This document shows positions 19,893 through 62,915 of a stretch of DNA of 64,000 bases, in pieces. Position 1 is the stretch's first letter. Each line of letters starts with the position of its first letter. This DNA comes from Bacillus bingmayongensis. GTDB lineage: Bacteria > Bacillota > Bacilli > Bacillales > Bacillaceae_G. Below the pieces are notes generated by a model. It saw nothing but the letters and a program-made list of their open reading frames with translations. It ran no database searches and had not been told where the DNA came from. The translations under genes and the position numbers were made by a program. The stretch spans positions 1 through 64,000 of the forward strand of contig NZ_JH921519.1 of the NCBI RefSeq assembly GCF_000299035.1. Direction: 5' to 3'.

Positions 19893-20012
19893 CCCTTCCT
19901 CTCATCTTTCAAAGCAATCGCTTTGCAGGAATTGGCACCATTTCAACATAAATGTTGACGGTTGCCGGGCTTCACAGGGCACAGTCCCTCCACCTCTCTT
20001 GATAAGAGAAAT
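19893..20012 (-). promoter_or_regulatory. SAM-I riboswitch (S-box)
   Basis: Reading leftward, the class-specific pieces occur in order: CTTATCAAGAGAGGTGGAGG, GACTG...GAAGCCCGGCAACC, GGTGCCAATTCC and GATGAGAGG. S-adenosylmethionine binding stabilises termination, so metNPQ is expressed when SAM (methionine) is low. Confidence 0.95.
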
Positions 20013-48425: not shown

Positions 48426-48740
48426 GCCGCATTTCCTCCTTCCAATTCTAGTGTGATGCAAAAATGAAATAAAAAAACACTCCTCCCTAAAAAAGGGACG
48501 AGTGTTGTATTCGTGGTTCCACCCTTGTTTCATCAGCAAAGTAACACACTTCACCAATTTCTCAAGTCTAAATAACGGCTTTTGCCGGCAAGCAATTACT
48601 AGATATTCGTTCACTGCTGCAGTTCAGAGGTGGTAATCCATTTTTCCGTATTAGGAAGCTCACAGCCAAAGACCTCCTTCTCTGAGAATCGTAAAAAATC
48701 GATCATGTCCTCATCATCACTTCTTGATGTCGAATTTTGT
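48426..48740 (-). promoter_or_regulatory. T-box leader, probably threonine-specific
   Basis: Reading leftward: the specifier region with ACC at 48634-48632 just before CCTCTGAAC, the T-box AAGGGTGGAACCACG (48525-48512 area) and the terminator 48476-48506 (AACACTCCTCCC/AAGGGACGAGTGTT). Uncharged tRNA binding prevents termination, so the permease is made on amino acid starvation. The specifier is a best reading; neighbouring codons are possible. Confidence 0.85.
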
Positions 48741-48975: not shown

Positions 48976-49815
48976 TTAGTTACTTGCCTTCTTCATTAAA
49001 AATTTATGATCTTTAATTGGAAAATCGACACCTAGCTCATCTAATTGTGCTTTTACTTTGTCCATAATCGCTTCCGCTTTTTTCTTTGTCGCATCATCAA
49101 GGTTTGCAAACATTTCTTCTTGTTTTCCTTTTTCAGGAAGTTTCACACCTAATTCTTCCAGTTTCTCTTTTGCTTGTTCATGTGTTAATGTACCAGATTT
49201 CTTCTGATCCATAATTGCTTTTACCTTTTCTTTCGCCTCGTCATCAAGGTTCGCTAACATTTCCACACGCTTCCCTTTTTCAGGAAGATTTACACCTAGT
49301 TCGGCTAGTTTCTCTTTTGCTTGTTCATGTGTTAATGTACCCGATTTTTCCTGATCCATAATCGCTTTTACCTTTTCTTTCGCCTCGTCATCAAGGTTCG
49401 CTAACATTTCCACGCGCTTCCCTTTTTCAGGAAGATTTATACCTAGTTCGGCCAATTTCTCTTTTGCTTGTTCATGTGTTAATGTACCCGATTTTTCCTG
49501 ATCCATAATCGCTTTTACCTTTTCTTTTGCCCCATCATCAAGGTTTGCTAACATTTCCACGCGCTTCCCTTTTTCAGGAAGATTTACACCTAGTTCAGCT
49601 AATTGTTTTTTGGCGTTCTCCATAATCGTTTGTACTTTTTGTTTCGTTGCTTCATCCAATTTTTGATTCTGATTTCCTTTTGTCGTTTGTTCTGTTGCTG
49701 ATGTAGAATTGGCATCGTTCGTTGCCGCAAAAGCAGGAACACCTACTCCCCCTATGATTCCTAGTGATAAAGCTCCGGCAGCTACTAAATATCCAACTGT
49801 TTTTTTCTTCTTCAT
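48976..49815 (-). CDS. Secreted protein with 49-residue tandem repeats
   Basis: 279 residues. Signal peptide (about 1-30, ending AFA), a short Thr/Gln linker and then repeats of 49 residues at 72-120, 121-169 and 170-218 plus a partial fourth. Each begins LAELGVNLPEKGKRVEML and is highly helical and charged. The 147-base DNA repeats are nearly identical, showing recent expansion. Function not recognised; possible surface or spore-related protein. AAGGAGG before ATG. Confidence 0.75.
   Translation of the reverse strand: MKKKKTVGYLVAAGALSLGIIGGVGVPAFAATNDANSTSATEQTTKGNQNQKLDEATKQKVQTIMENAKKQLAELGVNLPEKGKRVEMLANLDDGAKEKVKAIMDQEKSGTLTHEQAKEKLAELGINLPEKGKRVEMLANLDDEAKEKVKAIMDQEKSGTLTHEQAKEKLAELGVNLPEKGKRVEMLANLDDEAKEKVKAIMDQKKSGTLTHEQAKEKLEELGVKLPEKGKQEEMFANLDDATKKKAEAIMDKVKAQLDELGVDFPIKDHKFLMKKASN
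49172..49612 (-). repeat. 147-bp tandem repeats in the secreted protein gene
   Basis: The phrase ACCTAGTTCGG recurs at 49294 and 49441, exactly 147 bases apart (49 codons), in a near-identical context that also extends to 49588. The copies differ by few bases. Confidence 0.8.
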
Positions 49816-49982
49816 AAAAAACTTCCTCCTTCATTTTGTATCACATACATTTCGAAAACATGTACACTCTCGTATACAATACATATAGTAAAGTTGGTTT
49901 CTTAATTTTCCCTTAACTGTTTCTACAAGACTTGGCGACTGTAAAAAATGATTCTATTGTGGTACCAAAATTCAATACATCA

Positions 49983-50015
49983 AAAAAGCCACTCCTAAAT
50001 TAGAGTGGCTTTCTT
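49983..50015 (-). terminator. Terminator of yidC
   Basis: AAAGCCACTCTAA-type stem (AAAGCCACTC / GAGTGGCTTT) directly after the yidC stop. Confidence 0.8.
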
Positions 50016-50798
50016 CTATGCATTTTGTAATTGTCCTTGTTCACGATCCATTACTTTTCTAAGCACAATTGTTTGTAGCATTGTAAATATGTTACCTGTA
50101 ATCCAGTATAATACAAGTCCTGATGGCGCCGCAAATCCCATAAATAAAATCATTGCTGGCATCATGAACTGTTGCACTTTCAGCATTTGAACTTGCTCTC
50201 CTGCCGATGTATTTGACTGCATAACCTTCATTTGAATAAATGTTGTCAGTGCTGCAAGAATCGGTAATATATGATACGGATCTGCATGTCCTAAGTTTAC
50301 CCATAAAAATGAAGATGTACGAATCTCTTCAGTCCGGCTAATCGCATAATACAATGCTGAAAAAATTGGCATTTGTATTAAAAGTGGCAAGCAACCAGCT
50401 AAAGGATTCCACCCACCTGTTTTCATTAGTTCTGACATTTCTTTTTGATATTGTTTTTGTTTTTCAATATCTTTGCTTACATCACCATGTTTTTCTTTCA
50501 ACTTTTGCATCTCTGGCTGCATTGTTTTCATCTTCATTTGACTACGATATTGCGAAACAGCTAATGGGATCATTGCTGAGCGAACCAAAAGCGTAATAAT
50601 AATAATCGCAATCCCAAAGCTTCCACCAGGTACATGATGTGAGGCAAATTGAAGCATAAGTGAGATTGGATATACAAAATAGTGATTCCAAATCCCAGTA
50701 CTATTTGCATCAATCGGTGCCGTATTGCTACACCCAGATAAAACAAAAACAAGTAATAATGATAAACTAACGAGCACAGCTCGGTATGATTTTAACAT
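50016..50798 (-). CDS. yidC: Membrane protein insertase YidC (YidC2/OxaA type)
   Basis: 260 residues. Lipobox LSGC (Cys23), then the YidC/Oxa1 core with five helices; the groove arginine lies in LLVRSAMIPLAVSQYRSQ. Inserts and folds membrane proteins alone or with Sec. ATG at 50798 has GGAGG 7 bases upstream; an ATG two codons earlier is too close to the site. Expression seems controlled by the upstream ORF 50827-51111 and the hairpin at 50809-50841. Confidence 0.93.
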   Translation of the reverse strand: MLKSYRAVLVSLSLLLVFVLSGCSNTAPIDANSTGIWNHYFVYPISLMLQFASHHVPGGSFGIAIIIITLLVRSAMIPLAVSQYRSQMKMKTMQPEMQKLKEKHGDVSKDIEKQKQYQKEMSELMKTGGWNPLAGCLPLLIQMPIFSALYYAISRTEEIRTSSFLWVNLGHADPYHILPILAALTTFIQMKVMQSNTSAGEQVQMLKVQQFMMPAMILFMGFAAPSGLVLYWITGNIFTMLQTIVLRKVMDREQGQLQNA

Positions 50799-50808
50799 GT
50801 TCATTCCT

Positions 50809-50841
50809 CCAATGTTTCGTAATTAGTTAGCGAAACATTGG
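50809..50841 (-). promoter_or_regulatory. Hairpin joining the upstream ORF end to the yidC ribosome site
   Basis: Leftward, CCAATGTTTCG (50841-50831) pairs perfectly with CGAAACATTGG (50819-50809) around an 11-base loop. The 5' arm is the last codons of the 94-residue ORF and the 3' arm ends in the first two G of the yidC GGAGGA. A ribosome stalled near the end of the ORF would melt it and expose the site. There is no U-run, so it is not a terminator. Confidence 0.75.
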
Positions 50842-51111
50842 TGTATACGGACCGACCTCGTCACTCTCTCCGCTCGATTCTTGTCTACGAACCGAACGAA
50901 TCATTCCATATTTATAGAAGATAGAAAAAAGCGGAGTATTTCCTATACGCTCTTCACATGTATCAACTAATGCGAAAGCTTTTTGTCTACCGCTCGATGT
51001 TTGCTGGCGTACAAAGCGAGAAACATTAGCGAGAAAAAAGACTTCTAATAAACAAAGCGCTGTCGTTACAACAGATATATAGAGAATTGCATCTTGCAAT
51101 AAAAATTCCAT
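50827..51111 (-). CDS. Upstream ORF of yidC, MifM-like arrest-peptide candidate
   Basis: 94 residues: an N-terminal helix (about 7-29, SVVTTALCLLEVFFLANV), a basic middle and an acidic end SSGESDEVGPYTPMFR. B. subtilis MifM is also about 95 residues with one helix, is translated just before yidC2, and stalls the ribosome near an acidic C-terminus to open a stem that covers the yidC2 ribosome site. Size, topology, position and the hairpin all agree here. Sequence identity to MifM is not claimed; stalling is inference. AAGGA 9 bases before ATG. Confidence 0.75.
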   Translation of the reverse strand: MEFLLQDAILYISVVTTALCLLEVFFLANVSRFVRQQTSSGRQKAFALVDTCEERIGNTPLFSIFYKYGMIRSVRRQESSGESDEVGPYTPMFR

Positions 51112-51388
51112 CGCTTCACATCCTTAATAAGTTCATTTTAGCACATTCCACAAATGTTCTCTATTTTCTTTTATTTTCAAATTAAACCTTTTGCATATTT
51201 TATCAGGAAAATATACGAAGACGATTAGTGTATTCGCTTTCTTTAGTATATTCACACACATAACTGAATAGGATTGATTTGTTAGAAATTTATAAAATTT
51301 TTGCATTATAATAAAACTATTGCCAGTTTTTGAAAAAAGCATTATTCTCTTCTTGTAATCAAAAATGAATATGGAGATGAAACATACT

Positions 51389-62501: not shown

Positions 62502-62760
62502 AGCCCCACCCCTATCTTCTAAAAAGATAAGGGCGGGGCTGTATGAACAGTCGCGGTACCACCTTATTTCGTCAGCTATTCACATAACTAACCTCATCAA
62601 GTACGGAGCAATCATATGCTCTTATACTGTGGTTTTGATAACGAGAACCAACTCTCGTCGCCGCCTACTATTATCATTTGATAAGTTCAGGACGCAGCTC
62701 AAAGGCCATTGTTCAAATGAACATTCTTGCTTCTTCTCAGCTTCTGAAGCTCTCTGGAAA
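62502..62760 (-). promoter_or_regulatory. T-box leader, probably methionine-specific
   Basis: Leftward: AGAGAGCTTC, the specifier ATG (62709-62707) just before GCCTTTGAGCTG, T-box GGTGGTACCGCG (62565-62552 area) and a terminator (62502-62540, AGCCCCACCCCTATCTT with AGATAAGGGCGGGGCT). The leader is intact although the gene behind it is destroyed. Confidence 0.9.
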
Positions 62761-62915
62761 GAATGGTTTCATTCTACTTTTCCTTTTCAACGCTTTTCAT
62801 ATATAATACGTATTTTACGACTAAAATACAGAAAAATCAAACTTTAATTCGAAGAAAAAAGGAAATAAATAATTCTTTCCGAATATGTACATGTTCAAAG
62901 AAAGGAGTGAGTTCA

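What the first reader, a model, noticed from the sequence alone, without database searches (positions are those of the whole stretch)
50796..51111. Likely MifM-type ribosome-arrest switch upstream of yidC in a B. cereus group genome
A 94-codon ORF with one membrane helix and an acidic tail (SSGESDEVGPYTPMFR) ends 28 bases before the yidC start. Its last codons (50831-50841) pair perfectly over 11 bases with 50809-50819, whose end takes two G of the yidC GGAGGA. In B. subtilis, MifM (about the same size and topology) stalls near an acidic C-terminus when YidC activity is low and opens such a stem to switch on yidC2. Size, order, topology and hairpin are seen; the stall is inferred. The tail sequence looks different enough that this may be a distinct arrest motif.
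Basis: partly seen in the sequence, partly recalled or inferred. Interest (0 to 1): 0.82.

Follow-up and report, generated by a model that had tools for sequence, protein, structure and literature searches.

The report
MifM-type leader switch before yidC
A small membrane-protein gene and an RNA hairpin sit directly in front of a copy of a membrane-protein insertion gene (yidC), and comparison with relatives suggests they form a switch, like one known from Bacillus subtilis, that turns yidC on when membrane insertion falters, but with a different stalling sequence.

Summary
On the minus strand a 94-codon ORF (51111-50827) ends 28 bases before the yidC start at 50798. Its last codons form a perfect 11-bp stem reaching into the yidC ribosome-binding site; 2 of 4000 shuffles do as well there. 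Seven homologues of the leader were found, six of them in Priestia or a Priestia-like family. These and the window keep the hairpin: 88 of 88 pair cells form, 5 of 11 pairs with changes on both sides. Close pairs show more synonymous than amino-acid change, and conservation is strongest near the C-terminus: K67..V.R.E..GE.D..GP. The six YidCs with this leader that were compared form one clade (99/98). Direct similarity to B. subtilis-type MifM is not significant (P 0.12-0.13), but intermediates link them (P 7e-6, then 1.5e-4). The B. subtilis arrest residues are not kept. Best reading: a divergent MifM-type YidC monitor with its own arrest sequence; the stall is inferred. The 2024 MifM cluster (572 sequences) may already hold it; its lists were not readable.

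The parts
50827..51111 (-). Leader ORF, 94 aa, MifM-like: one N-terminal hydrophobic segment, acidic run near the C-terminus
   Evidence: synonymous against amino-acid change in close homologues
51028..51078 (-). Hydrophobic segment, residues 12-28 (putative N-out/C-in membrane helix; net charge -2 before it, +4 in residues 29-48; topology inferred)
50848..50913 (-). Conserved C-terminal stretch, codons 67-88 (proposed arrest sequence; K67 V74 R76 E78 G81 E82 D84 G87 P88 in 8 of 8)
   Evidence: function inferred
50809..50841 (-). Hairpin: 5' arm 50841-50831 in codons 91-94, 11-nt loop, 3' arm 50819-50809 reaching into the yidC ribosome-binding site
50805..50810 (-). GGAGGA, ribosome-binding site of yidC
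50016..50798 (-). yidC (60KD_IMP, YidC/Oxa1 insertase), start at the second ATG
51121..51125 (-). AAGGA, likely ribosome-binding site of the leader, 9 nt before its ATG
   Evidence: AAGGATGTG also before the leader in L119 and L118; L120 has AAGTATGTG; the other rows were not looked at
51135..51163 (-). Promoter-like site TAGAGA-17-TAAAAT with TG before the second hexamer; a consensus match only (10 such sites in the region, 7.0 expected by shuffles)
49982..50015 (-). Terminator-like hairpin and T run after yidC (strong fold; the pattern scan did not list it)
   Evidence: z -6.94

Best explanation
[quoted passage not shown] With no stall, the ribosome finishes the leader, the stem refolds and covers the yidC ribosome-binding site, so yidC stays low. 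The nascent leader, through its conserved C-terminal sequence (about residues 67-88), halts its own ribosome with the P site around codons 84-90. The ribosome then occupies the 5' arm (from codon 91), the ribosome-binding site is freed, and yidC is translated. Insertion of the N-terminal helix by active YidC pulls on the chain and ends the halt. Shown here: ORF, its conservation as a protein, the hairpin and its paired changes, the geometry, linkage with one YidC clade. Inferred: stall, its place, its release, induction, topology, co-transcription.
For: Homologues with the same C-terminus lie 21-29 nt upstream of an intact yidC in 5 of the 7 relatives found (L119, L120, L121, L122, L136). Stem: 88 of 88 cells paired, 5 of 11 pairs changed on both sides, slid versions 51-61% paired. 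Control: in 17 other adjacent gene pairs from the loci read, the longest stem at the ribosome-binding site was 5 bp; 17 leaders had 5 to 17 bp, 14 of them 7 or more. In the window the last acidic pair ends at codon 85 and the stem starts at codon 91; in the 17 leaders the distance is 0 to 6 codons, 3 to 6 in 14 of them. From the end of the hydrophobic segment (residue 28) to the acidic run (84) is about 56 residues; the 2024 survey gives a median of 54 from signal to arrest site for MifM (passage). Profile comparison: window family to three intermediates P 7e-6 over 81 columns (HH probability 84%), intermediates to the MifM set with L156 P 1.5e-4 (51%), joint P 2.6e-4 (42%); 0 of 200 column shuffles as good in the first and the last. 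A model of ten MifM leaders alone scores L134 above 500 of 500 shuffles, L156 above 498, L149 above 495. Window YidC and the five compared YidCs behind the same leader form one clade, 99/98. The same layout works as a switch by reporters for CliM (section read) and is described for MifM (passages).
Against: No stall data. Direct window-family to MifM comparison is not significant (P 0.12-0.13, HH probability 0.5%); without L156 the intermediates reach only P 0.013. Single-sequence tests are mixed: L126, L001 and L002 do not stand out against the MifM model or against the window-family model in several cases (e.g. 145 and 103 of 500 shuffles as good for L126 and L001 with the MifM model; 155 and 55 for L001 and L002 with the window-family model). 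Residues essential in B. subtilis are not conserved. Only two bases of GGAGG lie in the perfect stem. L134, L149 and L156 show weak perfect stems (6, 5, 6 bp), no better or hardly better than the control. In L117 the yidC is cut and in L118 another gene follows. The 8 aligned leaders are about four independent lineages, and the window is the only one from its own group. The highest identity of the window YidC is to a YidC without a leader (L153, 49%). The homologues are patchy: intact ORF in 5 of 16 genomes of one family, an N-terminal remnant in a sixth.
Confidence: 0.8

Rival explanations
1. Plain translational coupling: the leader is a small membrane protein of its own function, and the terminating ribosome simply opens the stem so that yidC is translated in proportion; there is no regulated stall.
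For: The stem brackets the stop codon, so termination itself would open it. The N-terminal part is also under protein-level constraint.
Against: 10 of the 16 invariant columns lie in the last 28 positions, the stretch that would fill the exit tunnel; the leader goes with one YidC clade; intermediates lead towards a proven arrest peptide.
Confidence: 0.12
2. An arrest peptide that senses something other than YidC-dependent insertion (Sec, membrane potential, a ligand) and happens to control yidC.
For: In G170 the same leader and hairpin precede a MutS-family gene, so the output need not be yidC.
Against: The other six relatives precede yidC or, in L117, a cut yidC; a short spacer from signal to arrest site of narrow spread is what the 2024 survey reports for YidC monitors (passage).
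Confidence: 0.06
3. Chance ORF and chance hairpin.
For: No Pfam or NCBIfam hit for the ORF at E 1.
Against: Homologous protein, excess of synonymous change, stem with paired changes, similar spacing.
Confidence: 0.01

Closest known systems
MifM-yidC2 (yqjG) of Bacillus subtilis
   Same: Leader of about 95 codons with one N-terminal membrane helix, acidic run near codons 84-89, hairpin from last codons to the yidC ribosome-binding site, similar spacing; linked through intermediates.
   Different: B. subtilis arrest residues RI..WI.....MN....DEED replaced by K......V.R.E..GE.D..GP; the YidC lies in another clade than the MifM-bearing YidC2s; direct profile match not significant.
CliM-yidC2 of Clostridia (uC_KYxIW)
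   Same: Same logic, shown with reporters in B. subtilis (section read); a KY pair (K67 Y68) in the window recalls KYxIW.
   Different: Homology was not tested; the KYxIW motif itself is absent (window KYGMI).
ApcA-yidC of Actinobacteria
   Same: Leader before yidC.
   Different: RAPG-type motif (passages); none here.

Membership tests
MifM (YidC-monitoring arrest peptide) | Small ORF directly upstream of a yidC gene | tested here: met
MifM (YidC-monitoring arrest peptide) | N-terminal membrane segment and a C-terminal region more than 30 residues away | tested here: met
   by hydropathy only
MifM (YidC-monitoring arrest peptide) | Acidic run between residues 70 and 100 (2024 rule: five-residue local charge below -0.3) | tested here: met
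   -0.6 at residues 81-86, -0.8 in the seven relatives, by simple K/R/D/E counting; rule, whose own program was not run
MifM (YidC-monitoring arrest peptide) | Hairpin over the yidC ribosome-binding site that starts in the last leader codons | tested here: met
MifM (YidC-monitoring arrest peptide) | Sequence homology to B. subtilis-type MifM | tested here: inconclusive
   direct P 0.12-0.13; through intermediates P 7e-6 and 1.5e-4, joint 2.6e-4 at HH probability 42%
MifM (YidC-monitoring arrest peptide) | B. subtilis arrest residues RI..WI.....MN....DEED | tested here: not met
   so not filed as a MifM of the B. subtilis kind
MifM (YidC-monitoring arrest peptide) | Ribosome stall, released by YidC-dependent insertion, inducing yidC | not testable with these tools
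   needs toeprint and reporters
CliM (Clostridia) | KYxIW / KWxIW motif | tested here: not met
   window reads KYGMI
RAPP-type arrest peptides (ApcA, ApdA, RQH) | RAPP-like ending | tested here: not met
   no RAPP, RAGP or RAPG in the ORF

The most novel reading that the evidence does not exclude
A MifM-related leader subfamily with its own arrest sequence has become a movable regulatory cassette: it drives yidC on chromosomes and on a Priestia plasmid, and, beside a Tn7-like gene set in one genome, it has been re-wired to put a MutS-family ATPase with a hydrophobic N-terminus under the control of membrane-insertion failure.
Probability: 0.2. Interest if true: 0.68.

Novelty: new variant of a known kind. 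Interest (0 to 1): 0.45.

Why it matters
By the 2026 CliM paper only MifM and CliM are shown by experiment to monitor YidC (passage). A divergent leader with the same RNA logic but other arrest residues would show which parts of a MifM switch are fixed (spacing, acidic run, hairpin) and which drift, and gives a natural variant for structural work. The copy before a MutS-family gene would be, if it works, a monitoring switch with a new output.

Tried and rejected
Pfam and NCBIfam gave nothing for the leader; Rfam at its gathering scores listed nothing in this region. A genome-contig scan with the leader found none (54 pattern matches, 0 confirmed); the scan with YidC kept 80 of 84 loci, best identity 47%. 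Phages: no match. Plasmids: one record with the window leader, the same one with the L136 leader. Viral contigs: 17 pattern matches, 0 confirmed. The exact MifM codon pattern was in 0 of 397 genomes. Weak hits in G300 and G185 lie antisense to a 307-aa ORF, and that of G208 in an antiporter-like operon (label recalled): rejected. Of the other weak hits (E up to 1; 107 of 397 genomes) I followed only G005, a true leader before yidC; the rest were not examined one by one. A second weak G168 hit (E 8e-4, stop inside) showed no clear leader. In one search, 26 of 111 distinct YidC ORFs had a hydrophobic upstream ORF; I set aside 4 as other genes (L027, L046 acylphosphatase-like; L075, L080 YidD-like: labels recalled). 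L156 fell under that cut-off and is taken as a leader. The PF02096 search of 368 genomes listed only its best-scoring rows, so a wider survey of secondary yidC genes was not possible. The left end of the Tn7-like element was not found. A MutS relative on a Staphylococcus plasmid has no annotated leader and no open stretch of 50 or more codons ending within 200 nt upstream. Species identity: IS and phage searches uninformative; PDB searches with three other window proteins named no species.

Full report
Observation. Read on the minus strand, the 94-codon ORF (51111-50827) is followed after 28 nt by an ATG at 50798 that starts yidC; GGAGG lies 7 nt before that ATG. The protein downstream is a YidC/Oxa1 insertase (Pfam 60KD_IMP 1.3e-52). 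Its best NCBIfam equivalog is SpoIIIJ at 262 bits, under that model's cut-off of 377, so it is not the primary YidC by that rule. A promoter-like site (no better than chance in number) and a strong terminator-like hairpin (z -6.94) bracket the two genes.

Hairpin. The stem CCAATGTTTCG/CGAAACATTGG is exact and brackets the stop codon. In a 56-nt fold 0 of 200 shuffles are as stable, in an 81-nt fold 3 of 200. A stem of this length ending at the ribosome-binding site arises in 2 of 4000 shuffles (8 of 4000 with G-U); with G-U allowed a 12-bp stem elsewhere in the leader is longer. The window holds 32 perfect stems of 11 bp or more, so only place and conservation make this one notable.

Relatives. 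The collections searched held no close relative of the window. A search of 397 genomes of one order found six full-length homologues (E 3.6e-8 to 5.1e-4) and a plasmid search a seventh, on a Priestia aryabhattai plasmid, annotated as a hypothetical protein before yidC. Five of the seven precede an intact yidC. In G347 the yidC departs from its relatives after about 24 codons and soon ends. In G170 the gene behind the hairpin is a 539-aa protein with a MutS domain V (6.6e-25). Among strong hits (E below 1e-10) a profile search of the same 397 genomes added only an N-terminal remnant in G168; its many weak hits were not examined one by one. In the family that holds five of the genomes, 5 of 16 have the leader ORF intact and one the remnant; that this family is Priestia is inferred from the plasmid's host.

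Protein conservation. Eight leaders share 16 invariant columns, 10 of them in the last 28 residues: K67, V74, R76, E78, G81, E82, D84, G87, P88, F93. Four close pairs were counted. In three (from three sequences, so not independent) dS is 0.25-0.28 and dN 0.014-0.05 over codons 1-62, and dS 0.36-0.64 against dN 0.017-0.05 over codons 63-87. The fourth pair is too close to tell (dS 0.088, dN 0.025; no synonymous change in 63-87). Codons from 88 on, which also form the stem, have too few sites.

RNA conservation. I aligned the stem regions of all eight; the first alignment put L118 out of register by one base, and I shortened that row (one base at its start, two at its end) before the count. Then 88 of 88 cells pair, 5 of 11 pairs change on both sides, and partners slid by 1-3 columns pair in 51-61%. 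The window and G170 share the outer nine pairs; four Priestia-type rows have a second sequence, G327/G265 a third. The eight rows are about four independent lineages. Control: 17 other neighbouring gene pairs (ORFs of 150 aa or more, gap 10-60 nt, from part of the loci) gave at most 5 bp at the ribosome-binding site; 17 leaders gave 5-17 bp, 14 of them at least 7, while L134, L149 and L156 had 6, 5 and 6.

Geometry. In the window the last acidic pair ends at codon 85 and the 5' arm starts at codon 91; B. subtilis-like MifM leaders have 87/90, 92/95 and 95/98. A ribosome held around codons 84-90 would cover the arm and leave the start of yidC free (my arithmetic, with a footprint edge of about 15 nt, recalled). 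B. subtilis MifM halts mainly at positions 89-92 by one paper (passage).

Kinship with MifM. The MifM reference letters came from PDB entry 3j9w, and ten MifM leaders from genomes found with them. Window family against these: P 0.12-0.13, not significant, though in register. Other leaders before yidC, from Priestia-like genomes (L134, L149) and G005 (L126), match the window family with P 7e-6 over 81 columns. Against the ten MifM leaders they reach P 0.013, and P 1.5e-4 once L156 is added to the MifM side; window family and intermediates together against that set give P 2.6e-4, HH probability 42%, 0 of 200 column shuffles as high. I placed L156 with MifM by eye; a model of the ten MifM leaders alone later scored it above 498 of 500 shuffles, L134 above 500 of 500 and L149 above 495. 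Other single tests failed: L126, L001 against the MifM model, L001, L002, L156 against the window-family model. I chose the intermediates after seeing their sequences, so these P values are somewhat generous. I read this as remote common descent, with the arrest residues replaced.

YidC tree. Among 28 YidCs the six with the window-type leader (window included) form one side of a branch (99/98), away from the MifM-bearing YidC2s (a 20-row tree gave the same). G243 and G194 carry three YidCs. Leaders of the wider kind occur on several YidC branches: 22 of 111 distinct YidC ORFs after setting 4 other genes aside, a sample shaped by my searches and so no rate.

Literature. The 2024 survey (PMC10987492; passages and two sections) reports 572 MifM sequences from 592 Firmicutes genomes, chosen by an acidic run at residues 70-100, which the window ORF has; its lists were not readable, so I do not claim that this leader is unseen. 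No paper of this library holds MifM, Bacillus cereus and arrest together, or MifM and megaterium; the listings (15 of 24; 12 of 26) showed no such case. CliM (PMC13183943, one section and passages) gives the nearest proof that the layout works as a switch. B. cereus YidC2 is named BC5488 in a membrane-proteome paper (passage); whether it is this gene was not tested.

The MutS case. In G170, contig 5, genes with TnsA, Mu-type transposase, TniB/AAA and TniQ/TnsD domains are followed by the leader, the hairpin with its ribosome-binding site, the MutS-domain gene (hydrophobic peaks at residues 1, 156, 177 and 256), then three 23-nt direct repeats (0 of 200 shuffles) near the contig end. The left end was not found, and a faulty assembly is not excluded. 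The same genome has a MifM-like leader before another yidC. No paper holding arrest peptide, Tn7 and transposon was found.

Verdict. A real, conserved MifM-type leader with a variant arrest sequence; the switch is likely (0.8), the stall unproven.

Noticed in passing
L118:4038-5971 with L198 (G170 contig 5, 140017-149225): Same leader and hairpin placed before a MutS-domain gene, next to Tn7-like tnsABCD genes and three 23-nt repeats; possibly a re-wired switch.
   Followed up: partly
L136:4001-5076 (Priestia aryabhattai plasmid pG5MAi6_1): Leader plus yidC carried on a plasmid, downstream of a group II intron maturase gene.
   Followed up: partly
L117:3600-4432 (G347); L137 (G168): Decay: in G347 yidC is cut after about 24 codons behind an intact leader and hairpin; in G168 only about 41 N-terminal codons of the leader remain.
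   Followed up: partly
L134, L149, L126, L001, L002: Further 90-95 aa leaders before yidC with acidic runs but different C-terminal sequences (Priestia-like, G005, Alkalihalobacillus, Fictibacillus): several arrest-sequence types may exist in one order.
   Followed up: partly
window 62526-62799, 48491-48726, 19899-20008 (-): Two T-box leaders and a SAM riboswitch by Rfam.
   Followed up: no
window 48976-49815 (-): Repeat protein with a signal-like N-terminus and a ...EKLAELGVNLPEKGKR... unit, just downstream of yidC.
   Followed up: no
L198:13635-15887 (G170): Ribonucleotide reductase domain split over two ORFs around an HNH endonuclease ORF, beside the Tn7-like genes.
   Followed up: no
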